This document shows, piece by piece, positions 1-44,814 of a stretch of DNA of 64,000 nt (its first letter is position 1; each line of letters begins with the position of its first letter). The stretch comes from Aphelenchoides besseyi. Taxonomy: Eukaryota; Nematoda; Chromadorea; Rhabditida; Aphelenchoididae. Position numbers and translations under genes: made by a program. The notes under the pieces are model-generated. The model was not told the DNA's origin, made no database searches, and worked only from the letters and a program-made list of their open reading frames with translations. The stretch lies in contig JAMPIQ010000003.1 in assembly GCA_024699855.1 (NCBI GenBank), positions 3,100,001 to 3,164,000 of the forward strand, read 5' to 3'.

Positions 1-948
1 ACCATAAGAGATACTCGAACTCGACCGCGGCTTCTCTGGAGCAAAACTGCTCCACGGCGGTGCGAACTGATTCTTCTTGTGTGCGGTCCATGAGTGGGCT
101 CCATGCCTTGCCCGTGTTTATGAGCTGCTTGTCGGTGAGTGGATTCAGTGGCGCCCTGGCGTCAACCGAGTACTTTTTGCACTTTGGTTTGCCTCGGTTT
201 TCAAGGAAAGACTCGTGCAACTTGGGATCTTTTGGCAATTCCAATCCCAAGCACTCTGCCCGCGACTTCGCCTCGCGCTTTGTAGGTTTTTGTCTTGGGT
301 AATCCTAGAGCCGTATTCTGAAAAAAAAAAACAAGGGAATCGATCCGAGGTCTTGAATGTTGACCTTCATCGACACTTACCTTCGTGTTCTTGCATGGCA
401 CCACGCAGTACCAGACCACACCAACGACAGCTGCGACAATCACCGCCAATCCAACCCTAAAAAGAGAAGTTAAGAAGAAAATTGAGTGACTTACAAAACA
501 GCCACGACGATAATCACCACAAGGTAAACCGGGATCTTGTCCTTGGACGGATCGTATTCCGTGGCATCAAACTGAAATCGAGACCTTTAGACGGAAGTCA
601 TCTGAACGCACTTACGAATTGGAAGTTTAAGGCCGTGAGATTCGCATGGCCCAAGTACTTGACCGTGGTAGTGTAGCCGATCCATGTTTATTTTTCGAAA
701 TTCGGCGCTCCTTTGACCGCTTGTGTAAAATCCGGCTTGCCATCGCTTTTCAACTTGATTCCTTCACCATCGGCTTTGCCGCAGATCGGGTAGAAATACA
801 TGATAACACCTGAAATCAAAATTTATCGTTGTAACGGTTTGTATTCTTACCGGTTGCGAAGTACTTTGAGCCAAGTTCATTAACAATCGCGGTCCCTGAC
901 ATTGAAACTTCACCAACTGCATCTCGTTGGCGTTCAAGAAGCGATTCG
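1..948 (-). CDS. Membrane protein gene B, left-arm copy (partial at window edge)
   Basis: Mirror copy of the gene at 43562-44814. Exons on the minus strand encode an extracellular part with the phrase CGKADGEGIK, one hydrophobic segment of about 30 residues rich in V/A/I, then WYCVVPCKNTK at the start of a charged cytoplasmic tail. The 3' part falls outside the window. No family recognised. It lies about 230 bp downstream of gene A on the same strand, and their shared plan (ectodomain, one TM, acidic/basic tail with W and Y residues) suggests tandem paralogues. That relationship is inferred. Confidence 0.6.
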
Positions 949-1174
949 CTGAATTAAATAATGAGCAACTGCAATATTCAAGCGATCACTACAGTCAAAA
1001 GAGTGAAATAGAAGTAACCTTTGACTGCTATGTCCAATTGGGTTGTTCAATGACTGCAATCAGACTGATAGAAAGCCTGGAACTCTCGAAGGCCAATTGC
1101 ATTGAATAATGATAACCGCGGACTGTTCTGATATTCAAAGATTAGTGTTTTTATAATCAGGAAAACCCGTCATT

Positions 1175-3313
1175 TCAACGACGTCTATTTCTTCCTCTAC
1201 AGCACAAGGCGTTCCGATCCCCACGGAAAAGCCAAGCGAAAAACGTATCTTTGGGATTTGAGTCTTCCTCCGTCTTCTGATCCTCGTAGCAATAAAGAAT
1301 CGTATCAATGATTTGGTACAATTGGACGTTGTCGTTTCCTTCTAAATTAATGTTTTTCAACTAAAAAAGTGTAAGAGTAGAATCCAAGAAATGTACACGT
1401 ACGTAGTTGTCGTAATCAGGCTTCAATTCCTTCAGTTTTTTTTCTAATGCCTTCGCTTCCTTAGGTCTGACTTCATAATAATGGAGTAAATGTCGCACGT
1501 CGTGTTCAAGTTGGTATTGAGAAATAAACGTCACTTGGAAACATTCCATCAAATAGTCGCGAATCTTATCGAAGTTTTTATGAACATCCTTCCACCTGAT
1601 CAGATCGGCGCTGCCGTTGGCCGGAAAAAAATAACGCGGTGGCACCAATTCATCCATGAGCTGATTCACTTCGTCTTGTGTATTGTCGGTCTTCGTCGAT
1701 CGCTGAGTTCTATCCATCACGTCTTCGGCGGCCAACTGGCCTTTCTTTGCCTCATACTTACTCTGCCCGCAACCGTTCCATACGATTATTATCGAACTCA
1801 GTAAAAACATTGCCATGTACGCTTTCGTCGGTTCTTCTTGTTCTCCTCTTTTCGTCTGTAAAAGCGTAACATATCAGTTTCTGAAGACTTACTTACCTTT
1901 CCTCGTACGACTTTTTCCCAATGTTTGTATTCATCTACCAACGCGTTGTATTGCTGATCGTTGAGTGGATTTATTACGAGGAACCTGACTAGCCTGCGAA
2001 AAAGTTTGTAGTTTGACCAGCCAAAGACAGGAAACATGTCGAACAATCGATGCCAATAGCTGATCGGATATGGTCCAGTTGGAAAATCACACTTTTCATA
2101 CTGTAATTTGGCCTTAGCTATCACTTGCTCCTTGTTTACGACACGATCTGGCAGCTTTTCTATGGCCGTATTCACGTCCTTATTTTCTGCCATCTTCTTG
2201 GCATCTTTTGGTTTGACTAGCAGCTTGATATTCGGCTTCCAACTCTTTTGAACTTTCTCGTTCTTCTTCTCTTCGTTCTTTTTCTCTTTGATTTCCTTGT
2301 TCTCTTTGATTTCCTTGTTCTCTTTTGCGAGTTTGCCGTCTGGAGCGATTGGAGCCGTTGCATTGACTATCTTCTGTTGGTTTCCATTTTCTAGATTTGC
2401 ATTGGATGCTTTCGGATCGACTTTCTTTGACTTCTTGCGGCAGCAACAGTATATGGCAACGATCACAAAGACAATAACAGCAAACACAACAAGACTGAAA
2501 CGAACAGAAGTCACTTATATTTATCTGAATACTAACCCTAAGACGATCCAACCCCAGAGTGGCATCTTGAATGCATCTTTCTCATGGTTTTCTCGGACCA
2601 CTTTGACCGACGAATCCTGAAATTTGCTTACAAGCGAAATAGGCAGAAACCAACCAATTCCACACTGACGATGTTTTCCGTGTCGACGTGAAGTTTGATG
2701 GTCGTTTTGGCTTTTCCGTCTTTCCCGAGTGTAAACGGCGATTGACAAACTGAACCTTTCTGGTTTGCACCTTTTCCTTGAAGCGTAGCTTCTGAAGTGT
2801 TTGCAACGATCTTAATTGGCGCAGTGAATGTATCATCTCCTTAAATTGCAGGAACCAATCAAGATTTCAGTTAAATTTCAACATACCGACCTTAAAAACT
2901 TGTACGGATGTTGAAAACGTCCCCGCAATTTGGCAATTGCCGATAGTGATTGAACCTCTGAACAAACGACAGTTTTGCTCAATTTCGCTGTAGACTCACT
3001 CAAAACTTTTCTCTTCCTTCTTAATCTTTATAGTCGCTTTGATCGTATTCGATGCGCTCTCCACATCGACAGACGAGTCTTTGCAAGTACCCGTGATTGT
3101 TCTGAAAACACGACCTCCGGCTTTGATTTAAACAAGAACTTACTTTCCATTCAAGCAACTGGCCTTCTTCTCCGCCGACAACAACCACGAAGAATCAGCC
3201 GCCACGAACATCGTCGCTACAACCACAAGCATCAACATCCAAGTAGTCCCGGAACCCGGCGATTTGGACATCGGCTTCCAAGCGCCACGAAGCACAAAGT
3301 CGAAGATCCCCAT
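1175..3313 (-). CDS. Membrane protein gene A, left-arm copy (intact)
   Basis: At least seven exons. The N-terminus holds a signal-like hydrophobic stretch (MLMLVVVATMFVAADSSW). It is followed by a Cys-containing ectodomain of about 130 residues, a transmembrane segment (WGWIVLGLVVFAVIVFVIVA), a CCCRKKSKK stop-transfer, a K/E-rich linker and a long cytoplasmic domain ending NALCCRGRNRRR. The first ATG is directly next to a heat-shock-like palindrome; a later in-frame ATG at MLMLVV would make a better signal peptide and may be the true start. One intron is only 38 nt and starts GTTGG. In this arm the exon after about 1860 stays open through a KKTK/RGEQEE junction to the end, whereas the right copy is frameshifted twice. 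Function unknown; single-pass surface receptor or adhesion-type protein is a guess from topology. Confidence 0.75.
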
Positions 3314-3333
3314 CTTCGGGAACGTTCCCGAAT
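3314..3333. promoter_or_regulatory. Four-unit heat-shock-element-like palindrome
   Basis: Perfect 18-bp palindrome TTCGGGAACGTTCCCGAA at 3315-3332. It is exactly four alternating nTTCn/nGAAn pentamers, the consensus HSF trimer site. It lies immediately upstream of the first possible ATG of gene A, so it would be in the promoter or 5' UTR if translation starts at the later methionine. Mirrored at 41172-41191. Confidence 0.6.
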
Positions 3334-4775
3334 CCCGAAGAACAATAGACGGAAAGCAAATCGAACATTCACCTTCGACTCTGCATCATTACTTATACTA
3401 ATTTTTGTCAACTGTCCAGAATTTTCAGATCCAAATGGATTTAACATCGTACTTGGAAACTAATGGTTAACAGTGAGATCCAGGTGATTTGATCACGTTT
3501 GAATAGTCGAAGTGTGCCATTGTGACGACGATGTTTTGTCGCGTTTGAACGCGAAAGAAAAGGGCGAACGATTGGCGAAGTCCCTCACCTCTCTCCTTTC
3601 GGTCATTCACCTCCTTAGCGTTCAGTTTGGCCTTGGCGGGCGAGATGTCTCACAGGTTGTACCCAAAAACATTAAAACTATTGGAGAAATTAGTCTCTTC
3701 GCTTACGTGCTGATAATTCGATAATCGAAAGATTTCCTACTTTACGACCAGCTGCGTTTCATTTTAAAAGCTTCATGAATTGTCTGTAGTCTACAACTGA
3801 TTTCATTGCGCCTTTCTTCTGGCTCTCTGATTGCAAAAACAGTTTCAAACAAACTGAACGTTTCCAATTGATGCTTTCCTTGAACATCATCTGCATCGTC
3901 CTCATTTCATGAATTCACGATTCCTTACATTTTAATGATTAAAGGTCTTAGATTGAAATTACTCACCTAAAACAAAAAATTTAAAGCGCGCAAACAACAG
4001 GGAAAATAATCAAAATTGGTTAAGTTCAACAATATGTATTTTTTGCTTGAATGTACTTTTAGTACCTAATTTATAGATATTTGAGATTTAATTGAACAAT
4101 ATCTTTAAAGAAGGTTATCTTTCAAAAACACCGTAGCATATACAACACCGAAGATTTTTTGAGCGCGGAAACCCCTTTTTAGATCTGAACCCTCCGGATC
4201 TTCTCCAGGCGAGCGGAAAAGTATTTTAAATGTATTACCGGGTTTACTTGTTCTTAGCACTTTGCTCTAAATTTCTTTATTCATTGAGTATATTCGTATT
4301 GTTTCGTTATGGGCTTGCGTTGTCTACATTGTGCGGAAGTTCTATGCACAGCTAAATATATGTGTCAAGTCTCATCGTGATGGCAAGCGATGGAACGTAC
4401 GTTTCAGCCGCTCAATCAAGTTCCGGGACGCCGATAAGTCTCTCGACCCAACACGACGTTGTCGATCCTAACCGATACTTTATCACTGTCGTAAATATTG
4501 GAAATAAATGAAATGAAGTCTCATCACGCTACGCGAAGACTCGCTTTGTTCCGATTGATTTTGCTGTCTCCAGTGCAATTGCTAAGAAACTTACGATGGC
4601 GTATAACAACGAAAAAGAGTGTCGCGTTAGAACGCGAAAAAACCACCAAATCGCTTAAATTGTTGCGGATCAAGAAGTCCGCCCCTCAAGTTTGAGATTA
4701 TTTAAAACACCAGTCGTTTCGTTGGTATTCTCACATTGAAAGGTGAAGACTACTACAAGAGTAACTTTTAATTAA
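3334..4775. other. No supported gene (left arm)
   Basis: AT-richer stretch without a convincing spliced reading frame. Short frames at 3512-3724 and 4498-4695 have no recognisable motif, and I treat them as chance. Mirrored at about 39730-41171. Confidence 0.5.
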
Positions 4776-5049
4776 ATGGTTCATGTAACCTGCATTGTAT
4801 TTAGGGCCCACAAGAACTTCTATCGTCCCGAGTTCTTAAGGTCGGAAATAGAAGAAATGAAGACTAGCATCGCATTTTTTGCGGCGGAGTTCTCCAAAAT
4901 CAGTCATGCCAGAGTCGGTGAAGCGCTCAAATCTTGTGTTGAAGACAAGCTGGCGAGACACGTGACTTCGAGTTCATCGTCTTTACCAAGTGTAACCCTA
5001 CGAAGAGGATCGGCGACCAAAGCTATGTAGCCAAGTTTGTCGGAAAGTA
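4776..5049 (+). CDS. Possible exon(s), unknown protein, frame-disrupted
   Basis: One frame reads MKTSIAFFAAEFSKISHARV and continues to VEDKLAR. A second frame then reads DFEFIVFTKCNPTKRIGDQS and ends VAKFVGK before a stop. The protein-like quality switches frame near 4960 without an obvious intron, suggesting either a missed splice or a small indel. No family recognised. The same arrangement is present in the other arm (39456-39730, minus). Confidence 0.3.
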
Positions 5050-5259
5050 AGCAGTTGTCCATGTATATGTTACGGTCTTTTTGTGAAATCGGAATTTTCA
5101 TGAAAAGTCCGGACCTTTTGTGAAACGGGCCGGGAAAAATGTAAAACAGCGCTTTCAAAGTTAATTAAGCACACTCAACAACACTCTTGATCGGAATTGT
5201 ATTCTTGGGCATTCTCATGAATCTATAGAAACCGGGAAATTAGAGTTCGATTTTCCGCC

Positions 5260-6560
5260 ATGAAAATGACTGTCAGCGGAGAGTCGGCTCCTCATTCCCT
5301 TGCCTTTTTTGGTGTTTTGTTTTCGTTGTTGTTTTGGAATGAATGTGATCTGCTGGTGAGTGTTACAACCGATTACATGCACTTGAATAAGATTCTAGGT
5401 TGTAGTGGAAACGTGAAGAGAAGACGAAACGGACGGTGTGGACGAAAGGTTTCGGTTAGAAGCTGCGCAACCTTTTGGACTGCTTCTGTCTTCATTCATA
5501 AACAAAAAACCTGCGGCGTCAAATCTGTTGACGAATATAAACGCATGTTGCGTGTTTTGAAGCAAAAGGCCGACGGTCTGAAAGTATATGAACAACGGGA
5601 CTACAATCTTATAAAACGGTATGTTGAGGTTTTGAAATTACGAACTCATGGCTTCTTTTTAGTTACAAACGAGAACTTGTCGGTCGAAAATACAAGTTCA
5701 AGAAAAGCCTTCTCGTCGTTCGCGATGACAAATGCTTCTGACTGCTCTGGTCGATTCACGCATCGAAAGGTCATTGTGGTCACAACATTATGATCAAGAA
5801 ACTGAAGAGTCAAAGATATGGAGGGCTGCGCAAGTAAGCTGAGCTCTTCTTGTGCTTTTACATCTCAGCGTTTCAGGGATCTGATATTATCGTTTTTCAG
5901 TTGTTGTGAACTTTGCAAGTTGGAACAATCGAAAATCAAACGCGGAGTAGTTGTGAAACCAATGATCGTAAAGGAGTATAACTCACGTGTTCAAATGGAT
6001 TTGACATTCTGAAGCCCAAAGATTGATCGAACGGGCAAATCGTGACGTCGAAGACTTGATCGCACGCGCGCTTGCCGAACGTTTCTCTACCCGTTGGGTG
6101 CCATTACTACCGATGATCCGATAGCAGAAGAACACGAGACATTATGCGGGGATCGGAATAACTCCATATCGTGCACTTTTCGGTATAGTTCAACGTTAGT
6201 TGTCGTAATGAGTTTTCTGTTTTAGGTATCGATCCAACTACTCAGCCACTCAAACTCAATTTAAGTTCCGAAGCAAATGACATTCCACTTGAATCGGTTA
6301 AGCCAGATGCCGATGAAATAAACGGGAATGCACAAATCGAGCCTTCTGTAGTGGTCGATGAACTGATTCTGGATTTGGACCCCGAACGAGCGAATTTAGT
6401 GGAGCAGACGATGGGTCGAATTAAAATTTGGGAAGCTGTTTTACGGGCCACACAAAACCAAGCCGAACGGATGCTACGCGCTTCGCAAAGACGGTAAGTG
6501 CTTCGATTTTCTTGTTTGTTTTCATTCAGTTTTAAGGTTCGGAACTGTTTGTGTTGGAAC
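5260..6560 (+). pseudogene. KRBA2/Ginger-like integrase remnant with deleted catalytic core
   Basis: Read across frames, the pieces match the order of transposon-derived integrases of the KRBA2/SCAND3/Ginger type. First comes a Lys/Arg-rich lead with YKRMLRVLKQ. Next is a zinc-binding H2C2-like region with GHNIMIKKLKSQRYGGLRK, then SCCELCKLEQSKIKRGVVVK and PMIVKEYNSRVQMDL. After that comes the C-terminal integrase phrase QRLIERANRDVEDLIARAL with GIGITPYRALFGI, followed by a tail with NQAERMLRASQR. Between VQMDL and QRLIERAN, where the D,D part of the DDE core should be, almost nothing is left. In-frame stops also occur (for example after LLPMIR). It is a non-functional relic, shared by both arms, so it predates the duplication. 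Confidence 0.65.
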
Positions 6561-6928
6561 AACAGTTTGATCAAAATTCTCATGTTGATTGTCACAAGAA
6601 TGCGAACATCGCAACATTTTCAACCGAAAACATCAAAACACACTCAACTCTGACAAGCTGAATTTCAGCAGTAATCGTTAGAGAAGAAAATGAACTCGTT
6701 TGTTTTAAAAGTTTGTTAAACATAAGAAAAACGCCAATTAGAAAAGAGACTTCTTGAGAATAGACAATCTTTTATATAGCAATTCAATCACAAAAAAATG
6801 TAATTTCAGTCTGCAGAATGGTTGGTTGTTTTCATCTGAGTTGCCATCTTGGGATGCTTGTGGAGCCGGTCGTTATTGGACAATAGTGTATAACGCGATT
6901 TTGTAGGGAAAAGCTCAGTTGAGAACGC

Positions 6929-7286
6929 TTATCGTTCGGTGTTGAAAGCTCGAACTTCTAAAAGATAAGATTAATGAATTTATATTAACTTACTTTGTGT
7001 CTCTGCCAAAAGGTGCTTCGCTTTCAGTTCCAGAGTTTTCCTTTGAACCTTTTTGATCAGCTTCCTTGCTTGCTCCAGGATGTCGGCTTTTTGCATCTGA
7101 ACTTCAGGGTAAAACTCGATCTCTTCGATAACACTTCGAAGCTCCTGGTACTGCAGTTGGAGTCGATGAAGGCGAATTGCTTGGCGGTCACCTTTACCCA
7201 TCTAAAAGAAATTTAATAAAAACAGAAATTTACTTACTTTTGGATGATGAGGCCCATCGTTTGAATCGTTGTAGCGCTTGGACATG
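6929..7286 (-). CDS. Small HES-like helix-loop-helix protein (left copy)
   Basis: Three exons give about 95 residues: MSKRYNDSNDGPHHPK, then a central part, then a short end KVRAFNTER. The centre contains LQLQYQELRSVIEEIEF as helix 1, a loop, and QKADILEQARKLIKKVQ as helix 2. The second helix follows the HES/E(spl) bHLH consensus (KADILE with A/V, L and a terminal basic-hydrophobic pattern). The basic region before helix 1 is weak: it lacks the ER-x-RR signature, so DNA binding is uncertain and a dominant-negative or heterodimer-only role is possible. Introns are 33-35 nt, with GTAAGT donors. The right copy at 37216-37572 appears identical in sense. Confidence 0.6.
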
Positions 7287-7832
7287 TTGACTAGACTTCA
7301 AAACGACTTGCTCTCGACACTGATGGCTGTGGTTTTGTATGTAGCTTCCGATCTGTCAGTTGAGTCGCTTCGATTCATCTAACTAGATTGATTGGGGACC
7401 TCGAGGTATTTTCGTTTTGAATTACAAAATGACATTTGCAACCCAAAATGTCCAGAAGGAATGACTGCTGATTAGTGGTATTGTTGTCACAATTTATGGT
7501 TGCGACCACCGGGTCGATCAAAAGATCGGTCGAGTTACACAACACTAGCAATTTGGGTTGTAAATGTGAAGCGCCGATCAGTGACTGTCAACAAAGTGAA
7601 AGAATACCGCGATGGTGTTTCTTACTATCGTCGTATCCTGCAGCTGATTGCAAATTTTTTCAAGTCATCGTCTTAGAATTTCATGCCGTTGATCAACACA
7701 TTCAAAATTAGCATTTTTGAGTATGCAAATTTTATTTGACTGTTCCACGAATCAATCAAATTCGTCAGTTGGAATTTATTCCGAGCTTTCGAACAGTCGT
7801 CCCAAATTATTGCTGAAACGTTGAACCTTGAG

Positions 7833-9584
7833 ATGCCAACGACACCGACGACTGAGGGATCAAAAGAAGGTGAATCGAAAGAGTTTCGATGGAGGACTTT
7901 GCCGGACGATTTGGCGGCTCTGAGTTTCTACGTTGGCTTTTTGCCTCGGTGAGTCCAATGGGAATACGAGATTTGATTTGCTGTTTCAGAGATGCCGTTG
8001 AATCACTATTGAAGAACGACGGCGACTACGCTATTTGGGCCGAAAAACGCGAGAGCGGATCACGTTGGTGTTTCATGTTGGCAGTTCAGACGAAGCCTGG
8101 AAAAGTGAGTTCCAAGTCACTTTGTGTGTGGAACGACCAGTTTTCTTTTTCAGGTCCGACATTTGAATCTCAACTTCTCTCCGACTGGTGGCGAAAAATG
8201 TTGGACTGTTGAAATGATGAAGGAAGCGGAGAAATACCGTGCCCCGACAATCACAGAGCTTGTTTCTGCTCTTCATCAGAAAGCAGACATCTCGTTCACT
8301 GATGGCTCCGCACCAATCAAACTCGTTAAATGCGTCAAACGTTCTTCAAAACTCTTCGGTGAATGCAAGGACTTGAAGGTCAAAGGTAAACGTCTTGGAG
8401 AAGGTAATGAGTAAAATTCTTTGATCGATTAATTGATTTTCTAGGAAACTTCTGCAACATAATTTTGGGCGAGTTGATAACGCCTTCAGGTACGCCTAAA
8501 AAAGTGGCGATCAAAGCGTGCAAAGATGCTATGCCCAATACGGTCAGTTTTTCTTCTCTATTCCATTTACTGTTTAAGTTGCAGACTGAAGATCACATTG
8601 CACTTGACCAGAAGGAACTCTTCATGGAAGCAAAGACACTTTCAAAACTTCAGCATCCCAACATCATCGAGTTCTTAGGAATCGTCTGCTTCAAAACACC
8701 AATCAAAGTTAGTTTTATGCGAAAGCCATAGAACAAAGACTCGATTCCAGATTGTGATGGAGTTCTGTCCAGGTGGAAGTTTGTTCATTCATCTGCAAAA
8801 ACACGCGGAGAAGATCTCAGTTGGCGAACGATTGCTCTACATGTTTGAAGTCGCACGTGGAATGTACTATCTGGAACAACGCGAAACAATTCATCGTGAT
8901 CTGGCGGCTCGCAACTGTCTAATCAGCAAGGACTCAACGATCAAGATTGCCGACTTTGGTTTGAGCATCACGAAGAAAGCGGCCGTACATGAACGTTGTC
9001 AAAAGCTTCGAGTGCCAATCCGCCAAATGGCACCGGAAACCATCGGCCGACAACCACGGTTCTCCAACAAGTCGGACGTTTGGGCCTACGGTATGTTTAT
9101 TTGGGAGGTTTTCAGCAACGGTCAGAAGGCGTGGATAGATGTGGAGGTCAAATTCATCGCCCAGAACATCAAAGAGCGCAACATGCCAACTTTGCCAGGT
9201 CAGTGATGAGAACGAACGAGTTTTCATTTCTTGTTTTCAGCCAACACTCCTCGTGAAGTCTTTGACATAGTCGCCAATTGTTGGAAACTTGAGATTGAAA
9301 AGCGTCCGAGTTTTGAACAACTTACCGAGGTCACCAGCAAACTCGTCCAGGACCCGAAATTCGCGCTTCCACCGATCTCAGCACGTACCATCTGTGTTTA
9401 CAAGGGGTTGAATCCACGCAAAAGCGACGACTTCGAAATCGAACCAGCAGTCAAAAATTCACCTCGATCGCTCCATGTAATCTCAGAGTTGATGATTCTT
9501 ATTGTTGATTTGCAGGCCCAAACTGAGACCCAACAATCACCAGATGATCGCCGTCGCACTAACAAACCCGACGGCACGGAATAA
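7833..9584 (+). CDS. SH2-tyrosine kinase of the nematode Fer-like group (left copy, intact)
   Basis: Spliced product of about 450 residues: a short N-terminus (MPTTPTTEGSKEGESKEF), an SH2-like domain (from FYVGFLPRDAVESLLKNDGD to about residue 115), then a kinase domain. The kinase has a glycine loop GEGNFCNI, the VAIK lysine, HRDLAARN catalytic loop, ADFGLS, MAPE and DVWAYG, so it should be catalytically competent as a cytosolic protein-tyrosine kinase. The SH2 core position that normally reads FLVR reads YAIWA here, so the phosphotyrosine-binding arginine appears to be Trp. All introns are 40-55 nt. Exon ends such as PIK|IVMEFC splice cleanly in this arm. An AATAAA lies at 9618-9623, after the TAA. 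Confidence 0.9.
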
Positions 9585-9847
9585 CCGTCGATTTCAATTT
9601 TGTCGGAGTCGTTCACAAATAAACATTTCAATTGAATTCGTTTCCTTGACAAGAAATTAAGGATTTCTGGCATGTTTACTTTTTGTAAAAATGTTCACTT
9701 AAAGATCATTAGCTTAAGACATAGTGGTCAGCAAAGCCTGCTCGTTTTAGAGAATGTTTTTGAAAGTTTTAATGCTTTGATGGCTTCAACATCTACGAAG
9801 TTTATTACAACAATAGATGGCCGTAGTTGATCTTCGTCTCTTAACTT

Positions 9848-10039
9848 TCAAATCTCCACGCTTTGCCCGTTATTGTCCAACAGTTTTTTGAGGCGACGTT
9901 GGTAATCTTCGACCGACCGTTCGATCATCTCTTGTGGCAAGTTATCGAACACTCGCACGCTTCGCCCTTGAAGATCCTCGAGATTGTCCGGTTTGGTCCG
10001 GTACACGAGGCTCTTCACGAATCGAGCGCAGAACCTCTG
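9848..10039 (-). pseudogene. 3' fragment of a DDE (IS630/Tc1-mariner-related) transposase
   Basis: The minus-strand exon reads FVKSLVYRTKPDNLEDLQG, then a segment with NLPQEMIERSVEDYQRRLKK, ending NGQSVEI-stop. This is the C-terminal signature of DDE_3-type transposases (L/F-K-S-x-V-Y-R-x-KP, then IPQEMI and xRRLxxC). The catalytic part is missing upstream. It lies between the intact kinase and the broken second kinase. Mirrored at 34463-34654. Confidence 0.55.
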
Positions 10040-10268
10040 CTACCGTATCCTCCGTACGCGGTGCTAAGAAACAAAGAGATAAAGAAGCACGAATCAGATG
10101 ACTAGCTACACCCAATGTTCGTCGTCTCATCGGAGTTAGTGCCAAGATAGTAAGTTTATAGACAACGATCTTACAACCAAGAAAGATACCTGTAGGCTTT
10201 CAACTGTTCTTTCAGTTGATTTCTTTACCTCTATTCTGAGGGACAAAGTTAATGTTGATGTTTACAGG

Positions 10269-10848
10269 AACCATTGATAATCGCGCTCGAATGTGTCGGC
10301 GGTAGTTCGTTGATCGAGTTTCCGAATTAAAACCGCGACAGCTTGCTGTTGCCAACAAAGCAATATACTGTTCAATGTGGCTTGCAGTTTCGACTATTTA
10401 CACTCTTGCAATTGCATTCGCGTGACATTGCCGCCCGAAACTGTCTTGTTTGTGTGAAATACGGAATCGTGAAGATTTCGGGTTTTGTTTTTCGAGTGTT
10501 GACAACTTTTGGACCGTAGATCGCACAAAACCGGCTCCTATTCATTGGTGAGCTCCGAAGGTTCTCGGTTGGCTATATATTTTATTTCTCTTTTTTAATC
10601 ATGAGTTTTTAGGTATGGCGAAATACTCCAAAGCCGCCGATGTCCGGAGTTTAACGTAAGTTTCTTTGCTTATTCATGTTTGTAGCTTCAACTTTCAGAA
10701 TCACCTGATGGGAAATCTCTACGTGCGCACAGAAGCTTCCGTTCAAGAACTACACATTGGCCGAAATACTACAGACGATTCTTCAAGACGCCAAGTTGCA
10801 TCCGAATATGCCTGCCGATTGTCTGTTGGAAACGACACGCTTAGCTGA
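10269..10848 (+). pseudogene. Second SH2-kinase-like gene, decayed (left copy)
   Basis: The pieces follow a tyrosine kinase in order: EPLIIALECVGGSSLIEF (hinge), HSRDIAARNCLV (catalytic loop) and VKISGF where DFG should stand. Then comes KYSKAADVRSL (the SDVWSF position) and, after a stop, WEISTCAQKLPFKNYTLAE through MPADCLLETTRLAE-stop. The N-lobe is absent, the DFG aspartate is Ser, and several stops interrupt it. It is probably a tandem relative of the kinase at 7833-9584 that died before the arms duplicated, since both arms carry it. Confidence 0.7.
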
Positions 10849-26847: not shown

Positions 26848-26912
26848 TCTTATAAGAAATTTCTTTCGGTTTCCCCATTGTTTTTCATTGTTTTTGTTAT
26901 TCATTTACTGCA

Positions 26913-27957: not shown

Positions 27958-28019
27958 TCTCAACTTATTAAAATCAGCCAAATAAACCGACTTTTCTTCT
28001 GTTTATTTCATATGTCTGT

Positions 28020-28243: not shown

Positions 28244-28245
28244 TA

Positions 28246-34233: not shown

Positions 34234-34462
34234 CCTGTAAACATCAACATTAACTTTGTCCCTCAGAATAGAGGTAAAGAAATCAACTGAAAGAACAGTT
34301 GAAAGCCTACAGGTATCTTTCTTGGTTGTAAGATCGTTGTCTATAAACTTACTATCTTGGCACTAACTCCGATGAGACGACGAACATTGGGTGTAGCTAG
34401 TCATCTGATTCGTGCTTCTTTATCTCTTTGTTTCTTAGCACCGCGTACGGAGGATACGGTAG

Positions 34463-34654
34463 CAGAGGTTCTGCGCTCGATTCGTGAAGAGCCTCGTGTA
34501 CCGGACCAAACCGGACAATCTCGAGGATCTTCAAGGGCGAAGCGTGCGAGTGTTCGATAACTTGCCACAAGAGATGATCGAACGGTCGGTCGAAGATTAC
34601 CAACGTCGCCTCAAAAAACTGTTGGACAATAACGGGCAAAGCGTGGAGATTTGA
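34463..34654 (+). pseudogene. 3' fragment of DDE transposase (right copy)
   Basis: Inverted copy of 9848-10039, ending NGQSVEI-stop. Confidence 0.55.
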
Positions 34655-34917
34655 AAGTTAAGAGACGAAGATCAACTACGGCCATCTATTGTTGTAATAA
34701 ACTTCGTAGATGTTGAAGCCATCAAAGCATTAAAACTTTCAAAAACATTCTCTAAAACGAGCAGGCTTTGCTGACCACTATGTCTTAAGCTAATGATCTT
34801 TAAGTGAACATTTTTACAAAAAGTAAACATGCCAGAAATCCTTAATTTCTTGTCAAGGAAACGAATTCAATTGAAATGTTTATTTGTGAACGACTCCGAC
34901 AAAATTGAAATCGACGG

Positions 34918-36670
34918 TTATTCCGTGCCGTCGGGTTTGTTAGTGCGACGGCGATCATCTGGTGATTGTTGGGTCTCAGTTTGGGCCTGCAAATCAACAA
35001 TAAGAATCATCAACTCTGAGATTACATGGAGCGATCGAGGTGAATTTTTGACTGCTGGTTCGATTTCGAAGTCGTCGCTTTTGCGTGGATTCAACCCCTT
35101 GTAAACACAGATGGTACGTGCTGAGATCGGTGGAAGCGCGAATTTCGGGTCCTGGACGAGTTTGCTGGTGACCTCGGTAAGTTGTTCAAAACTCGGACGC
35201 TTTTCAATCTCAAGTTTCCAACAATTGGCGACTATGTCAAAGACTTCACGAGGAGTGTTGGCTGAAAACAAGAAATGAAAACTCGTTCGTTCTCATCACT
35301 GACCTGGCAAAGTTGGCATGTTGCGCTCTTTGATGTTCTGGGCGATGAATTTGACCTCCACATCTATCCACGCCTTCTGACCGTTGCTGAAAACCTCCCA
35401 AATAAACATACCGTAGGCCCAAACGTCCGACTTGTTGGAGAACCGTGGTTGTCGGCCGATGGTTTCCGGTGCCATTTGGCGGATTGGCACTCGAAGCTTT
35501 TGACAACGTTCATGTACGGCCGCTTTCTTCGTGATGCTCAAACCAAAGTCGGCAATCTTGATCGTTGAGTCCTTGCTGATTAGACAGTTGCGAGCCGCCA
35601 GATCACGATGAATTGTTTCGCGTTGTTCCAGATAGTACATTCCACGTGCGACTTCAAACATGTAGAGCAATCGTTCGCCAACTGAGATCTTCTCCGCGTG
35701 TTTTTGCAGATGAATGAACAAACTTCCACCTGGACAGAACTCCATCACAATCTGGAATCGAGTCTTTGTTCTATGGCTTTCGCATAAAACTAACTTTGAT
35801 TGGTGTTTTTGAAGCAGACGATTCCTAAGAACTCGATGATGTTGGGATGCTGAAGTTTTGAAAGTGTCTTTGCTTCCATGAAGAGTTCCTTCTGGTCAAG
35901 TGCAATGTGATCTTCAGTCTGCAACTTAAACAGTAAATGGAATAGAGAAGAAAAACTGACCGTATTGGGCATAGCATCTTTGCACGCTTTGATCGCCACT
36001 TTTTTAGGCGTACCTGAAGGCGTTATCAACTCGCCCAAAATTATGTTGCAGAAGTTTCCTAGAAAATCAATTAATCGATCAAAGAATTTTACTCATTACC
36101 TTCTCCAAGACGTTTACCTTTGACCTTCAAGTCCTTGCATTCACCGAAGAGTTTTGAAGAACGTTTGACGCATTTAACGAGTTTGATTGGTGCGGAGCCA
36201 TCAGTGAACGAGATGTCTGCTTTCTGATGAAGAGCAGAAACAAGCTCTGTGATTGTCGGGGCACGGTATTTCTCCGCTTCCTTCATCATTTCAACAGTCC
36301 AACATTTTTCGCCACCAGTCGGAGAGAAGTTGAGATTCAAATGTCGGACCTGAAAAAGAAAACTGGTCGTTCCACACACAAAGTGACTTGGAACTCACTT
36401 TTCCAGGCTTCGTCTGAACTGCCAACATGAAACACCAACGTGATCCGCTCTCGCGTTTTTCGGCCCAAATAGCGTAGTCGCCGTCGTTCTTCAATAGTGA
36501 TTCAACGGCATCTCTGAAACAGCAAATCAAATCTCGTATTCCCATTGGACTCACCGAGGCAAAAAGCCAACGTAGAAACTCAGAGCCGCCAAATCGTCCG
36601 GCAAAGTCCTCCATCGAAACTCTTTCGATTCACCTTCTTTTGATCCCTCAGTCGTCGGTGTCGTTGGCAT
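34918..36670 (-). CDS. SH2-tyrosine kinase, right copy with one frameshift
   Basis: Same exon set as 7833-9584 with all kinase motifs. The T run at 35806-35810 is one base longer than in the left copy. This shifts the exon ending VCFK before its donor, so the splice to IVMEFC would be out of frame. Either this copy is newly inactivated or the run length is a consensus error. The Trp in place of the SH2 arginine is shared. Confidence 0.85.
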
Positions 36671-37215
36671 CTCAAGGTTCAACGTTTCAGCAATAATTTG
36701 GGACGACTGTTCGAAAGCTCGGAATAAATTCCAACTGACGAATTTGATTGATTCGTGGAACAGTCAAATAAAATTTGCATACTCAAAAATGCTAATTTTG
36801 AATGTGTTGATCAACGGCATGAAATTCTAAGACGATGACTTGAAAAAATTTGCAATCAGCTGCAGGATACGACGATAGTAAGAAACACCATCGCGGTATT
36901 CTTTCACTTTGTTGACAGTCACTGATCGGCGCTTCACATTTACAACCCAAATTGCTAGTGTTGTGTAACTCGACCGATCTTTTGATCGACCCGGTGGTCG
37001 CAACCATAAATTGTGACAACAATACCACTAATCAGCAGTCATTCCTTCTGGACATTTTGGGTTGCAAATGTCATTTTGTAATTCAAAACGAAAATACCTC
37101 GAGGTCCCAATCAATCTAGTTAGATGAATCGAAGCGACTCAACTGACAGATCGGAAGCTACATACAAACCACAGCCATCAGTGTCGAGAGCAAGTCGTTT
37201 TGAAGTCTAGTCAAC

Positions 37216-37572
37216 ATGTCCAAGCGCTACAACGATTCAAACGATGGGCCTCATCATCCAAAAGTAAGTAAATTTCTGTTTTTATTAAATTTCTTTTAGA
37301 TGGGTAAAGGTGACCGCCAAGCAATTCGCCTTCATCGACTCCAACTGCAGTACCAGGAGCTTCGAAGTGTTATCGAAGAGATCGAGTTTTACCCTGAAGT
37401 TCAGATGCAAAAAGCCGACATCCTGGAGCAAGCAAGGAAGCTGATCAAAAAGGTTCAAAGGAAAACTCTGGAACTGAAAGCGAAGCACCTTTTGGCAGAG
37501 ACACAAAGTAAGTTAATATAAATTCATTAATCTTATCTTTTAGAAGTTCGAGCTTTCAACACCGAACGATAA
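37216..37572 (+). CDS. Small HES-like helix-loop-helix protein (right copy)
   Basis: Inverted copy of 6929-7286. ATG, both short introns and the stop are preserved, and helix 2 reads QKADILEQARKLIKKVQ. Both copies look functional, so gene dosage may be doubled. Confidence 0.6.
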
Positions 37573-37949
37573 GCGTTCTCAACTGAGCTTTTCCCTACAA
37601 AATCGCGTTATACACTATTGTCCAATAACGACCGGCTCCACAAGCATCCCAAGATGGCAACTCAGATGAAAACAACCAACCATTCTGCAGACTGAAATTA
37701 CATTTTTTTGTGATTGAATTGCTATATAAAAGATTGTCTATTCTCAAGAAGTCTCTTTTCTAATTGGCGTTTTTCTTATGTTTAACAAACTTTTAAAACA
37801 AACGAGTTCATTTTCTTCTCTAACGATTACTGCTGAAATTCAGCTTGTCAGAGTTGAGTGTGTGTTTGATGTTTTCGGTTGAAAATGTTGCGATGTTCGC
37901 ATTCTTGTGACAATCAACATGAGAATTTTGATCAAACTGTTGTTCCAAC

Positions 37950-39246
37950 ACAAACAGTTCCGAACCTTAAAACTGAATGAAAACAAACAAGAAAATCGAA
38001 GCACTTACCGTCTTTGCGAAGCGCGTAGCATCCGTTCGGCTTGGTTTTGTGTGGCCCGTAAAACAGCTTCCCCAAATTTTAATTCGACCCATCGTCTGCT
38101 CCACTAAATTCGCTCGTTCGGGGTCCAAATCCAGAATCAGTTCATCATCGACCACTACAGAAGGCTCGATTTGTGCATTCCCGTTTATTTCATCGGCATC
38201 TGGCTTAACCGATTCAAGTGGAATGTCATTTGCTTCGGAACTTAAATTGAGTTTGAGTGGCTGAGTAGTTGGATCGATACCTAAAACAGAAAACTCATTA
38301 CGACAACTAACGTTGAACTATACCGAAAAGTGCACGATATGGAGTTATTCCGATCCCCGCATAATGTCTCGTGTTCTTCTGCTATCGGATCATCGGTAGT
38401 AATGGCACCCAACGGGTAGAGAAACGTTCGGCAAGCGCGCGTGCGATCAAGTCTTCGACGTCACGATTTGCCCGTTCGATCAATCTTTGGGCTTCAGAAT
38501 GTCAAATCCATTTGAACACGTGAGTTATACTCCTTTACGATCATTGGTTTCACAACTACTCCGCGTTTGATTTTCGATTGTTCCAACTTGCAAAGTTCAC
38601 AACAACTGAAAAACGATAATATCAGATCCCTGAAACGCTGAGATGTAAAAGCACAAGAAGAGCTCAGCTTACTTGCGCAGCCCTCCATATCTTTGACTCT
38701 TCAGTTTCTTGATCATAATGTTGTGACCACAATGACCTTTCGATGCGTGAATCGACCAGAGCAGTCAGAAGCATTTGTCATCGCGAACGACGAGAAGGCT
38801 TTTCTTGAACTTGTATTTTCGACCGACAAGTTCTCGTTTGTAACTAAAAAGAAGCCATGAGTTCGTAATTTCAAAACCTCAACATACCGTTTTATAAGAT
38901 TGTAGTCCCGTTGTTCATATACTTTCAGACCGTCGGCCTTTTGCTTCAAAACACGCAACATGCGTTTATATTCGTCAACAGATTTGACGCCGCAGGTTTT
39001 TTGTTTATGAATGAAGACAGAAGCAGTCCAAAAGGTTGCGCAGCTTCTAACCGAAACCTTTCGTCCACACCGTCCGTTTCGTCTTCTCTTCACGTTTCCA
39101 CTACAACCTAGAATCTTATTCAAGTGCATGTAATCGGTTGTAACACTCACCAGCAGATCACATTCATTCCAAAAACAACAACGAAAAAAAACACCAAAAA
39201 AGGCAAGGGAATGAGGAGCCGACTCTCCGCTGACAGTCATTTTCAT
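37950..39246 (-). pseudogene. KRBA2/Ginger-like integrase remnant (right copy)
   Basis: Inverted copy of 5260-6560 with the same missing catalytic core. It differs by an extra C at 38070-38073, an extra CAT triplet near 38140, and a changed T run near 39185, so a few mutations have accumulated since duplication. Confidence 0.65.
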
Positions 39247-39455
39247 GGCGGAAAATCGAACTCTAATTTCCCGGTTTCTATAGATTCATGAGAATGCCCA
39301 AGAATACAATTCCGATCAAGAGTGTTGTTGAGTGTGCTTAATTAACTTTGAAAGCGCTGTTTTACATTTTTCCCGGCCCGTTTCACAAAAGGTCCGGACT
39401 TTTCATGAAAATTCCGATTTCACAAAAAGACCGTAACATATACATGGACAACTGC

Positions 39456-39730
39456 TTACTTTCCGACAAACTTGGCTACATAGCTTTGGTCGCCGATCCT
39501 CTTCGTAGGGTTACACTTGGTAAAGACGATGAACTCGAAGTCACGTGTCTCGCCAGCTTGTCTTCAACACAAGATTTGAGCGCTTCACCGACTCTGGCAT
39601 GACTGATTTTGGAGAACTCCGCCGCAAAAAATGCGATGCTAGTCTTCATTTCTTCTATTTCCGACCTTAAGAACTCGGGACGATAGAAGTTCTTGTGGGC
39701 CCTAAATACAATGCAGGTTACATGAACCAT
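39456..39730 (-). CDS. Possible exon(s), unknown protein (right copy)
   Basis: Inverted copy of 4776-5049, with the same frame switch. Confidence 0.3.
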
Positions 39731-41171
39731 TTAATTAAAAGTTACTCTTGTAGTAGTCTTCACCTTTCAATGTGAGAATACCAACGAAACGACTGGTGTT
39801 TTAAATAATCTCAAACTTGAGGGGCGGACTTCTTGATCCGCAACAATTTAAGCGATTTGGTGGTTTTTTCGCGTTCTAACGCGACACTCTTTTTCGTTGT
39901 TATACGCCATCGTAAGTTTCTTAGCAATTGCACTGGAGACAGCAAAATCAATCGGAACAAAGCGAGTCTTCGCGTAGCGTGATGAGACTTCATTTCATTT
40001 ATTTCCAATATTTACGACAGTGATAAAGTATCGGTTAGGATCGACAACGTCGTGTTGGGTCGAGAGACTTATCGGCGTCCCGGAACTTGATTGAGCGGCT
40101 GAACGTACGTTCCATCGCTTGCCATCACGATGAGACTTGACACATATATTTAGCTGTGCATAGAACTTCCGCACAATGTAGACAACGCAAGCCCATAACG
40201 AAACAATACGAATATACTCAATGAATAAAGAAATTTAGAGCAAAGTGCTAAGAACAAGTAAACCCGGTAATACATTTAAAATACTTTTCCGCTCGCCTGG
40301 AGAAGATCCGGAGGGTTCAGATCTAAAAAGGGGTTTCCGCGCTCAAAAAATCTTCGGTGTTGTATATGCTACGGTGTTTTTGAAAGATAACCTTCTTTAA
40401 AGATATTGTTCAATTAAATCTCAAATATCTATAAATTAGGTACTAAAAGTACATTCAAGCAAAAAATACATATTGTTGAACTTAACCAATTTTGATTATT
40501 TTCCCTGTTGTTTGCGCGCTTTAAATTTTTTGTTTTAGGTGAGTAATTTCAATCTAAGACCTTTAATCATTAAAATGTAAGGAATCGTGAATTCATGAAA
40601 TGAGGACGATGCAGATGATGTTCAAGGAAAGCATCAATTGGAAACGTTCAGTTTGTTTGAAACTGTTTTTGCAATCAGAGAGCCAGAAGAAAGGCGCAAT
40701 GAAATCAGTTGTAGACTACAGACAATTCATGAAGCTTTTAAAATGAAACGCAGCTGGTCGTAAAGTAGGAAATCTTTCGATTATCGAATTATCAGCACGT
40801 AAGCGAAGAGACTAATTTCTCCAATAGTTTTAATGTTTTTGGGTACAACCTGTGAGACATCTCGCCCGCCAAGGCCAAACTGAACGCTAAGGAGGTGAAT
40901 GACCGAAAGGAGAGAGGTGAGGGACTTCGCCAATCGTTCGCCCTTTTCTTTCGCGTTCAAACGCGACAAAACATCGTCGTCACAATGGCACACTTCGACT
41001 ATTCAAACGTGATCAAATCACCTGGATCTCACTGTTAACCATTAGTTTCCAAGTACGATGTTAAATCCATTTGGATCTGAAAATTCTGGACAGTTGACAA
41101 AAATTAGTATAAGTAATGATGCAGAGTCGAAGGTGAATGTTCGATTTGCTTTCCGTCTATTGTTCTTCGGG
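39731..41171. other. No supported gene (right arm; mirrors 3334-4775)
   Basis: Same AT-rich DNA as the left arm. It lies just upstream of gene A and so probably includes its promoter. Confidence 0.5.
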
Positions 41172-41191
41172 ATTCGGGAACGTTCCCGAAG
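41172..41191. promoter_or_regulatory. Four-unit heat-shock-element-like palindrome (right copy)
   Basis: The 18-bp palindrome at 41173-41190 is identical to that at 3315-3332 and ends one base before the first ATG of gene A. Preserved in both arms. Confidence 0.6.
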
Positions 41192-43335
41192 ATGGGGATC
41201 TTCGACTTTGTGCTTCGTGGCGCTTGGAAGCCGATGTCCAAATCGCCGGGTTCCGGGACTACTTGGATGTTGATGCTTGTGGTTGTAGCGACGATGTTCG
41301 TGGCGGCTGATTCTTCGTGGTTGTTGTCGGCGGAGAAGAAGGCCAGTTGCTTGAATGGAAAGTAAGTTCTTGTTTAAATCAAAGCCGGAGGTCGTGTTTT
41401 CAGAACAATCACGGGTACTTGCAAAGACTCGTCTGTCGATGTGGAGAGCGCATCGAATACGATCAAAGCGACTATAAAGATCAAGAAGGGAGAGAAAGAT
41501 TTTGAGTGAGTCTACAGTGGAACTAAACAAAACTGTCGTTTGTTCAGAGGTTCAATCACTATCGGCAATTGCCAAATTGCGGGGACGTTTTCAACATCCC
41601 TACAACTTTTTAAGATCGGTATGTTGAAATTTAACTGAAATCTTGATTGGTTCCTGCAATTTAAGGGACTGTTGGCTCATTTGATGCGCCAATTGAGATC
41701 GTTGCAACAAGTTCAGAAGTCACGCTTCAAGGAAAGTTTGCAAATCAGAAAGGTTCTGTTTGTCAATCGCCGTTCACACTCGGGAAAGACGGAAAAGCCA
41801 AAACGACCATCAAACTTCACGTCGACACGGAAAACATCGTCAGTGTGGAATTGGTTGGTTTCTGCCTATTTCGCTTGTAAGCAAATTTCAGGATTCGTCG
41901 GTCAAAGTGGTCCGAGAAAACCATGAGAAAGATGCATTCAAGATGCCACTCTGGGGTTGGATCGTCTTAGGGTTAGTATTCAGATAAATATAAGTGACTT
42001 CTGTTCGTTTCAGTCTTGTTGTGTTTGCTGTTATTGTCTTTGTGATCGTTGCCATATACTGTTGCTGCCGCAAGAAGTCAAAGAAAGTCGATCCGAAAGC
42101 ATCCAATGCAAATCTAGAAAATGGAAACCAACAGAAGATAGTCAATGCAACGGCTCCAATCGCTCCAGACGGCAAACTCGCAAAAGAGAACAAGGAAATC
42201 AAAGAGAACAAGGAAATCAAAGAGAAAAAGAACGAAGAGAAGAAGAACGAGAAAGTTCAAAAGAGTTGGAAGCCGAATATCAAGCTGCTAGTCAAACCAA
42301 AAGATGCCAAGAAGATGGCAGAAAATAAGGACGTGAATACGGCCATAGAAAAGCTGCCAGATCGTGTCGTAAACAAGGAGCAAGTGATAGCTAAGGCCAA
42401 ATTACAGTATGAAAAGTGTGATTTTCCAACTGGACCATATCCGATCAGCTATTGGCATCGATTGTTCGACATGTTTCCTGTCTTTGGCTGGTCAAACTAC
42501 AAACTTTTTCGCAGGCTAGTCAGGTTCCTCGTAATAAATCCACTCAACGATCAGCAATACAACGCGTTGGTAGATGAATACAAACATTGGGAAAAAGTCG
42601 TACGAGGAAAGGTAAGTAAGTCTTCAGAAACTGATATGTTACGCTTTTACAGACGAAAAGAGAGAGAACAAGAAGAACCGACGAAAGCGTACATGGCAAT
42701 GTTTTTACTGAGTTCGATAATAATCGTATGGAACGGTTGCGGGCAGAGTAAGTATGAGGCAAAGAAAGGCCAGTTGGCCGCCGAAGACGTGATGGATAGA
42801 ACTCAGCGATCGACGAAGACCGACAATACACAAGACGAAGTGAATCAGCTCATGGATGAATTGGTGCCACCGCGTTATTTTTTTCCGGCCAACGGCAGCG
42901 CCGATCTGATCAGGTGGAAGGATGTTCATAAAAACTTCGATAAGATTCGCGACTATTTGATGGAATGTTTCCAAGTGACGTTTATTTCTCAATACCAACT
43001 TGAACACGACGTGCGACATTTACTCCATTATTATGAAGTCAGACCTAAGGAAGCGAAGGCATTAGAAAAAAAAACTGAAGGAATTGAAGCCTGATTACGA
43101 CAACTACGTACGTGTACATTTCTTGGATTCTACTCTTACACTTTTTTAGTTGAAAAACATTAATTTAGAAGGAAACGACAACGTCCAATTGTACCAAATC
43201 ATTGATACGATTCTTTATTGCTACGAGGATCAGAAGACGGAGGAAGACTCAAATCCCAAAGATACGTTTTTCGCTTGGCTTTTCCGTGGGGATCGGAACG
43301 CCTTGTGCTGTAGAGGAAGAAATAGACGTCGTTGA
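41192..43335 (+). CDS. Membrane protein gene A, right-arm copy (two frameshifts)
   Basis: Same architecture as the left copy: signal region, Cys-containing ectodomain, TM WGWIVLGLVVFAVIVFVIVA, CCCRKKSKK, charged tail. Ectodomain exon 3 differs strongly from the left copy (TSLQLFKIGTVGSFDAPIEI here against TSVQVFKVGDDTFTAPIKI). One extra base in the GAGAGAG run at about 42660 and one extra A in the run at 43067-43075 shift the frame of the cytoplasmic exons. Taken literally the tail is truncated; if these are run-length errors the gene is intact. Confidence 0.75.
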
Positions 43336-43561
43336 AATGACGGGTTTTCCTGATTATAAAAACACTAATCTTTGAATATCAGAACAGTCCGCGGTTATCA
43401 TTATTCAATGCAATTGGCCTTCGAGAGTTCCAGGCTTTCTATCAGTCTGATTGCAGTCATTGAACAACCCAATTGGACATAGCAGTCAAAGGTTACTTCT
43501 ATTTCACTCTTTTGACTGTAGTGATCGCTTGAATATTGCAGTTGCTCATTATTTAATTCAG

Positions 43562-44814
43562 CGAATCGCTTCTTGAACGCCAACGAGATGCAGTTGGTGA
43601 AGTTTCAATGTCAGGGACCGCGATTGTTAATGAACTTGGCTCAAAGTACTTCGCAACCGGTAAGAATACAAACCGTTACAACGATAAATTTTGATTTCAG
43701 GTGTTATCATGTATTTCTACCCGATCTGCGGCAAAGCCGATGGTGAAGGAATCAAGTTGAAAAGCGATGGCAAGCCGGATTTTACACAAGCGGTCAAAGG
43801 AGCGCCGAATTTCGAAAAAACATGGATCGGCTACACTACCACGGTCAAGTACTTGGGCCATGCGAATCTCACGGCCTTAAACTTCCAATTCGTAAGTGCG
43901 TTCAGATGACTTCCGTCTAAAGGTCTCGATTTCAGTTTGATGCCACGGAATACGATCCGTCCAAGGACAAGATCCCGGTTTACCTTGTGGTGATTATCGT
44001 CGTGGCTGTTTTGTAAGTCACTCAATTTTCTTCTTAACTTCTCTTTTTAGGGTTGGATTGGCGGTGATTGTCGCAGCTGTCGTTGGTGTGGTCTGGTACT
44101 GCGTGGTGCCATGCAAGAACACGAAGGTAAGTGTCGATGAAGGTCAACATTCAAGACCTCGGATCGATTCCCTTGTTTTTTTTTCAGAATACGGCTCTAG
44201 GATTACCCAAGACAAAAACCTACAAAGCGCGAGGCGAAGTCGCGGGCAGAGTGCTTGGGATTGGAATTGCCAAAAGATCCCAAGTTGCACGAGTCTTTCC
44301 TTGAAAACCGAGGCAAACCAAAGTGCAAAAAGTACTCGGTTGACGCCAGGGCGCCACTGAATCCACTCACCGACAAGCAGCTCATAAACACGGGCAAGGC
44401 ATGGAGCCCACTCATGGACCGCACACAAGAAGAATCAGTTCGCACCGCCGTGGAGCAGTTTTGCTCCAGAGAAGCCGCGGTCGAGTTCGAGTATCTCTTA
44501 TGGTTGAGCCAAAGTTCGAGGTCATCACTCATCTGCTCTCTTTGCCGATTTGGTGGCAACGATTCGACTTGTACTTCGACATGCCAGTCGAAGTTGTTCG
44601 TCCGCTGATCAAGGAGGCAAAGGAACGGTTGATCCGCTATCGCAACACCTTCGCCGAGGTAAGTCCATTCGCTTTTAATGTTTACTAATCGTTCTATTTT
44701 TAGGACTCGATCTTGCGAGCAACCGTCGACGAAGATCTGAAGGAGTTGGAGCAAGTCGAGATGGTCGCTGACCAAGTGTCAGCGGCCAAGACGGGGGCGG
44801 AAAAAGTGAGTTGA
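43562..44814 (+). CDS. Membrane protein gene B, right-arm copy
   Basis: Exons give SESLLERQRDAVGEVSMSGT to KYFATG|VIMYFYPICGKADGEG, TWIGYTTTVKYLGHANLTAL, then DKIPVYLVVIIVVAVLVGLA as TM and WYCVVPCKNTK. The tail contains CLGLELPKDPKLHESFLENR and TGKAWSPLMDRTQEESVRTA. Near 44500 the frame must slip by one base to reach VEPKFEVITHLLSLPIWWQR and end GAEKVS-stop. The 5' exon with the expected signal peptide was not identified. The acceptor before DYPRQKP (CTCTAG) is non-standard. Tandem relative of gene A by layout. Family unknown. Confidence 0.55.

What the first reader, a model, noticed from the sequence alone, without database searches (positions are those of the whole stretch)
1..44504. Near-identical >=14.75-kb inverted duplication around a unique 15.0-kb spacer
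Both arms share genes, pseudogenes and non-coding DNA in inverted order with almost no change, while the spacer is unique and full of single-copy genes. Near-identity implies very recent origin or continuing arm-to-arm gene conversion, as in sex-chromosome palindromes. A spacer-less chimeric read would not give this layout, but an assembly mis-join of haplotypes remains possible.
Basis: seen in the sequence. Interest (0 to 1): 0.8.

Follow-up and report, generated by a model that had tools for sequence, protein, structure and literature searches.

The report
Young inverted duplication in a nematode
A 15-thousand-base stretch of a plant nematode chromosome appears to have been copied, flipped, 15 thousand bases away so recently that the two copies are almost identical, within a sequence family that also swaps pieces with other copies; it is a very readable young example of a known kind of event.

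Summary
The inverted repeat is real; its arms are window -361..14755 and 29747..44866 (15,117 and 15,120 bp) around a 14,991-bp spacer. The genome is an Aphelenchoides besseyi assembly. Of 37 arm-to-arm substitutions, 32 lie in one ~291-bp patch, 3 near the outer edge, 1 at the inner junction, 1 elsewhere. Of 17 small indels 16 lie outside the patch, 12 of them 1 bp, which points to consensus errors more than to divergence. Other family copies polarise the event: at both ends arm A carries the ancestral sequence, while arm B abuts a full-length dispersed repeat outside and, through 3-4 bp of microhomology, a truncated LINE-like fragment inside. B is best read as a very recent inverted copy of A. 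The patch in A, the mosaic identity with a third copy (2,400 bp without substitution beside stretches 8-11% different) and B's composite outer edge show exchange among family copies. Arm-to-arm conversion is not shown; sex linkage was not testable. Three more inverted pairs of arm-related sequence were found. Assembly error is unlikely but only reads can exclude it; spacer orientation is the least secure point.

The parts
1..14755 (+). Arm A (source copy, ancestral edges); in the genome it begins 361 bp left of the window edge, at C3:3099639
   Evidence: polarity
14756..29746 (.). Spacer, 14,991 bp
29747..44866 (-). Arm B (derived inverted copy); unbroken identity starts at about 29751
2733..3023 (.). 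Divergent patch in arm A (32 of all 37 substitutions and one 3-bp indel); reads as a conversion tract from a paralogue not found in the assembly
41482..41775 (.). Same place in arm B, which keeps a state 97.6% like the third copy
14511..14779 (+). Dispersed repeat that runs across the inner edge of arm A (cut at the same place in B)
   Evidence: (4 of 4 loci examined align on to 14779)
29521..29754 (.). Dispersed fragment, read by eye as 3' part of an RTE-type LINE, truncated at the inner edge of arm B; overlap CCA or CCAA with the arm at 29751-29754
44866..45082 (+). Full-length copy of a ~216-bp dispersed repeat that begins where the homology of arm B ends
   Evidence: (5 of 5 copies examined start within 1 bp and end within 4 bp of each other)
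1364..3385 (-). Open frames of a predicted membrane protein and a small secreted protein in arm A (judged by eye); mirrored in B
   Evidence: no Pfam match above cut-off
8411..9581 (+). Protein tyrosine kinase domain in arm A; mirrored in B
15186..16295 (-). Spacer gene: Srh-type chemoreceptor (limits by eye)
18649..20694 (-). Spacer gene: neurotransmitter-gated ion-channel family (limits approximate, by eye)
22942..24057 (-). Spacer gene: Srt-type chemoreceptor (public name M3Y96_01050000; limits by eye)
26623..28245 (+). Tc1/mariner-type transposon in the spacer with ~225-bp terminal inverted repeats, 99.6% alike

Best explanation
A very recent segmental duplication placed a second copy of about 15.1 kb of chromosome C3, inverted, about 15 kb away, on the far side of chemoreceptor and ion-channel genes. 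Arm A is the source and arm B the copy. The likely route (inferred) is repair- or replication-based copying with template switching: one end joined through 3-4 bp of microhomology inside an old LINE-like fragment, the other end at a dispersed repeat. Arms of this length and likeness would allow inversion of the spacer and arm-to-arm conversion (inferred, not shown). Since then, or around the event, short conversion from other family copies has altered small stretches, best seen in a ~291-bp patch in arm A.
For: Arms: 37 substitutions and 17 indels in 15,131 columns; outside the patch, the outer ~110 bp and the inner junction base, 1 substitution remains. Outer end: copy C (C3:3231066-) matches A to -1088 and copy D (C3:2.878 Mb) to -912, both past the arm edge at -361, while B stops at a full-length 216-bp repeat. 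Inner end: a dispersed repeat runs across the edge of A in 4 of 4 loci examined and is cut in B, which passes into a LINE-like fragment with CCA(A) overlap. Patch: B is 97.6% like C there and A 87.5%, while on both sides A and B are equal and at least 99.4% like C. A patch of this length fits the conversion tracts tabulated for Caenorhabditis paralogues (mean 117 bp, range 12-2,958 for 7,829 pairs; section read); one 15-kb tract lies far outside that range, which favours a single duplication.
Against: The outermost 165 bp of B are identical to copy D while A differs there at 3 sites, and the switch to identity with A lies between -252 and -196; so B is not a plain copy of today's A to its very edge. 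Either B already held a family copy there, or A was converted at its edge later. The mosaic of copy C shows that divergence can be erased over kilobases in this family, and long tracts may build up from many short ones, so an older duplication cannot be dismissed. No reads, no second individual and no syntenic outgroup could be examined.
Confidence: 0.62

Rival explanations
1. Older palindrome kept alike by continuing arm-to-arm gene conversion, as proposed for human Y palindromes and for Caenorhabditis inverted gene pairs.
For: Exchange in this family is evident: arm B against copy C shows a 2,400-bp stretch without substitution (largest of 5,000 shuffles: 573) although some 500-bp bins differ by 8-11%; L009 is 0.0% different in 7 of the 8 250-bp bins from A 5750 to 7672 but 4.0% and 5.2% in two other bins. 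Difference at the extreme outer edge is where conversion would fail. In another A. besseyi assembly two kinase paralogues share 251 residues in a row and then diverge, both only 78-81% like the arm kinase.
Against: A foreign patch persists in one arm only; 15 kb exceeds single tracts tabulated for Caenorhabditis. The layout of the other assembly's kinase pair is unknown, and the spacer genes did not settle synteny. L007 and L008, 96% like the arm, show no long identical stretch (bins 0.4-10.8%).
Confidence: 0.22
2. Assembly artefact: mis-joined haplotigs, or a repeat wrongly placed by the assembler; arm B does not exist as drawn.
For: The consensus looks imperfect: 16 indels against 1 substitution outside patch, edge and junction, whereas arm A against copy C gives 62 gap openings to 236 substitutions (P about 2e-10 for so few substitutions at that ratio). 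Arms of 15 kb may exceed many reads (inference).
Against: Both edges of B are specific: a full-length repeat outside, a microhomology join inside; B's edge carries three bases that A lacks and copy D has. Both novel joints fall on the same arm, as one copying event predicts. Of the 13 indels that copy C covers outside the patch, 4 are private to A, 6 to B and 3 are unresolved, so neither arm is simply a bad copy of the other.
Confidence: 0.12
3. Arms real, but the spacer orientation is wrong or polymorphic (inversion by recombination between arms).
For: 15-kb near-identical inverted arms permit it in principle; orientation can only be read from molecules longer than an arm (inference).
Against: In the drawn orientation both ancestral edges sit on arm A, the simplest history.
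Confidence: 0.15

Closest known systems
Long inverted repeats of paralogous gene pairs in Caenorhabditis (Zhao et al. 2007, PMC1803023; abstract, first of four parts, duplication section and discussion read)
   Same: Nematode, near-identical inverted gene copies including non-coding DNA; conversion proposed
   Different: In the examples read: arms of about 0.1 to 2.2 kb, spacers of 126 and 414 bp, structure shared by species; here 15-kb arms, a 15-kb spacer, and no evidence of conservation between species
Large segmental duplication of C. elegans (Vergara et al. 2009, PMC2728738; abstract and section headings seen): 108-kb pair at 99.7%, present in 29 of 76 strains
   Same: Very young large duplication with near-identical copies
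   Different: Headings there speak of tandem duplication; here inverted with a spacer
Newborn C. elegans gene duplicates, often adjacent and in inverted orientation (stated in PMC2728529, one passage seen)
   Same: Inversion may arise with the duplication; no divergence yet
   Different: Here much longer, and separated by several other genes
Human Y-chromosome palindromes (PMC3723533, start of abstract seen in the listing)
   Same: Very similar inverted arms
   Different: No sex linkage, testis expression or arm-to-arm conversion shown here

Membership tests
Recent inverted segmental duplication | Two inverted copies longer than 1 kb and above 90% identity, with other DNA around | tested here: met
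Recent inverted segmental duplication | Ancestral edges on one copy, novel joints on the other | tested here: met
   the outermost 165 bp of B are D-like rather than A-like
Recent inverted segmental duplication | Empty site in a related genome | not testable with these tools
   no relatives of this genome are held
Conversion-maintained palindrome (Y type, Caenorhabditis type) | Arms more alike within a genome than orthologous arms between genomes | tested here: inconclusive
   kinase pair tagged M3Y94 alike within, different from the window's, but its layout is unknown; spacer genes did not settle synteny
Conversion-maintained palindrome (Y type, Caenorhabditis type) | Arm-to-arm conversion tracts | tested here: inconclusive
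   exchange with third copies seen; patch in A not homogenised
Sex-chromosome palindrome | Location on a sex-limited or hemizygous chromosome | not testable with these tools
   no depth by sex
Assembly artefact | No molecule spans the joints; abnormal depth | not testable with these tools
   no reads held

The most novel reading that the evidence does not exclude
The arms belong to a network of inverted and direct family copies on C3 and C2 that exchange cassettes: most of the unit is kept alike while a short stretch coding for the putative outer part of a membrane protein is swapped in from donor copies, diversifying it in frame. The donor of the patch was not found in the assembly, so the network may be larger than assembled.
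Probability: 0.1. Interest if true: 0.65.

Novelty: new member of a known kind. Interest (0 to 1): 0.35.

Why it matters
It is a nearly unaged inverted duplication whose source, copy, both joints and later conversion tracts can be read from sequence. That makes it a good place to measure in a nematode how inverted copies arise, how fast spacers flip and how fast arms convert. It also warns that gene copies annotated in such arms may carry uncorrected consensus indels.

Tried and rejected
Spacer synteny in other A. besseyi assemblies: the Srt query gave 12 proteins, of which one is named A. besseyi, this assembly's own (M3Y96_01050000, 99%); the Srh query gave one protein, M3Y98_00573300, 83%, on a contig of 16.07 Mb. 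Proteins are clustered at 90%, so absence of an M3Y94 entry proves nothing; left inconclusive.

Donor of the A patch: the search found 5 loci, the two arms and three others at 91% over the 451-bp query; inside the patch the three others are 87.5-88.2% like A and arm B is 89.0%. No donor found.

Reading the paired 85-bp hits as transposon ends was dropped because their order of orientations is not constant. The name RTE-type LINE is by eye and recall; no family search of it was made. An SH2 domain before the kinase was suspected by eye; Pfam gave none for that frame. Nine ORFs between A 9845 and 14187 gave no Pfam family except one weak kinase piece below cut-off, and one spacer ORF (16897-17346) gave none.

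Sex-palindrome reading: nothing in the data bears on it.

Literature: the rows listed by seven full-text searches (capped lists) show no description of this duplication. The A. besseyi genome paper (title and authors recalled) was not found as a text of its own; its title phrase occurs once each in 7 other papers (listing). It was not read.

Full report
What is there. The window is G000:C3:3100001-3164000 of a 47.39-Mb genome in 31 contigs. A public protein lying on a contig of exactly the length of C3 (9,972,226) is named Aphelenchoides besseyi, and the spacer's Srt gene matches M3Y96_01050000 of A. besseyi on a contig of that length at 99%. C1, C2 and C3 are 18.1, 17.8 and 10.0 Mb. A published karyotype catalogue lists the number 6 for A. 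besseyi (PMC11555361, row seen without headings), which I read as 2n = 6 and which fits three large contigs.

The inverted repeat. Extending the window by 30 kb left and 20 kb right gives arms -361..14755 and 29747..44866 (window coordinates; position 0 is C3:3100000), 99.6% alike. A global alignment of 15,131 columns has 37 substitutions and 17 indels. Thirty-two substitutions and one 3-bp indel sit in A 2733-3023. Three substitutions sit at -342, -333 and -252; one, at 14752, belongs to the junction; one remains, at 12384. Of the 16 indels outside the patch 12 are 1 bp. Arm A against the third copy shows 236 substitutions to 62 gap openings over 11,003 columns; with that ratio, at most one substitution among 17 events has P about 2e-10. 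Uncorrected consensus errors in a repeat are the simplest reading; real indel-rich mutation is not excluded, and copy C may carry such errors too. With 1 substitution in about 14.7 kb and a recalled C. elegans rate of 2.7e-9 per site and generation, an upper limit of some 60,000 generations follows by hand; it is rough and assumes no conversion.

Other copies. One arm gave 71 matches in the genome with 36 of 243 candidates scored; the list shows neither arm nor copy C, so it is a lower bound. Copy C at C3:3231066-3243274, same orientation as A, covers A -1088..10832 with an extra ~240 bp at A 9827-9832. It is a mosaic: arm B differs from it by 8.2, 9.0 and 11.0% in the 500-bp bins at 0, 1000 and 1500, while arm A differs by 0.0-0.4% in 14 of the 15 250-bp bins from 3500 to 7249, the exception being 2.0%. 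The longest stretch of B against C without substitution is 2,400 bp, where 5,000 shuffles reached at most 573; the index of dispersion is 20. L009 on C3 at 3.50 Mb behaves alike, while L007 and L008, 96% like A, vary between 0.4 and 10.8% per bin without long identical stretches. I compared five distinct pairs of fetched loci, chosen because searches listed them with similar scores. Three are inverted: L014/L015 (C2, about 75 kb apart, 99.8% over 3.5 kb), L012/L016 (C3, about 9 kb apart, 98.6% over 2.6 kb), L019/L021 (C2, about 13 kb apart, 96.6% over 0.8 kb). Two are direct: L007/L008 (98.8% over 7.3 kb) and L023/L025. This is no census.

Which arm is the copy. Copies C and D, the two other family copies that one search lists at this edge, continue past the outer edge of A, to -1088 and -912. 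B instead runs into a ~216-bp dispersed repeat; 5 of 5 other copies examined start within 1 bp and end within 4 bp of each other. At the inner edge A lies in a dispersed repeat that aligns on to 14779 in 4 of 4 loci examined. B passes into a fragment found elsewhere in the genome, read by eye as RTE-type LINE; at five other places it goes on differently after GCCA (L023, L025, L027) or GCCAA (L026), and in L024 the likeness runs three bases further, to 29757, with a gap. The overlap with the arm is thus CCA or CCAA. Both novel joints are on B. A wrong spacer orientation would put one novel joint on each arm, so the drawn orientation is the simpler one.

Exchange between copies. In the patch, B is 97.6% like C and A 87.5%; on both sides A and B are equal and at least 99.4% like C. 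So A changed, by sequence from a paralogue that the assembly search did not show. The patch touches what I read by eye as two exons of a minus-strand gene with signal-peptide-like and membrane-like segments; the change keeps the frame and alters many residues. At the outer edge B equals D from -361 to -197 and switches to A between -252 and -196. Either B had a D-like family copy before and was overwritten inward, or A's edge was converted later; at -342 A sides with C, at the other two sites A stands alone.

Gene content. Arms: predicted membrane and secreted proteins (by eye) without a Pfam family above cut-off, and a protein tyrosine kinase domain. Spacer: Srh and Srt chemoreceptors, a neurotransmitter-gated channel and a Tc1/mariner-type element. 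In another A. besseyi assembly two kinase paralogues, M3Y94_01103500 and M3Y94_01105500, share 251 residues in a row and then diverge, and are 78 and 81% like the arm kinase: likeness within that genome too, but the layout is unknown.

Verdict. A very young, inverted, spaced segmental duplication within a conversion-prone sequence family; a known kind of event, unusually readable. For the arms themselves one recent copying event is the simpler account: tracts tabulated for Caenorhabditis reach 2,958 bp (PMC3966223, section 4.1 read). The long inverted repeats of PMC1803023 (parts read) are the nearest nematode precedent that I saw. Sex linkage, depth and spanning reads could not be tested.

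Noticed in passing
window 26623-28245: Tc1/mariner-type transposon in the spacer with long (about 225 bp) and nearly identical terminal inverted repeats.
   Followed up: partly
L014 / L015 (C2:3947687-3952077 and 4023437-4027827): Another inverted pair, 99.8% over at least 3.5 kb and about 75 kb apart; the match runs to the end of the fetched stretch, so it may be longer.
   Followed up: partly
window 35810 and 38073 (arm B) and their mates in arm A: Single-base length differences between the arms inside open frames, one in the kinase domain; probably consensus errors, otherwise one arm's gene is broken. An open frame exists in the other arm.
   Followed up: partly
window 9827-9832; L007, L008 and third copy: Other copies carry roughly 240-260 bp extra here with a 6-bp overlap, absent from both arms, like the insertion or loss of a small mobile element.
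   Followed up: no
window 2733-3023: The donor of the patch in arm A was not found in the assembly, so further family copies or an alternative haplotype may be unassembled.
   Followed up: partly
window 45455-46171: Tc3-like transposase piece (Pfam HTH_Tnp_Tc3_2_like) just outside arm B, shortly after the 216-bp repeat.
   Followed up: no
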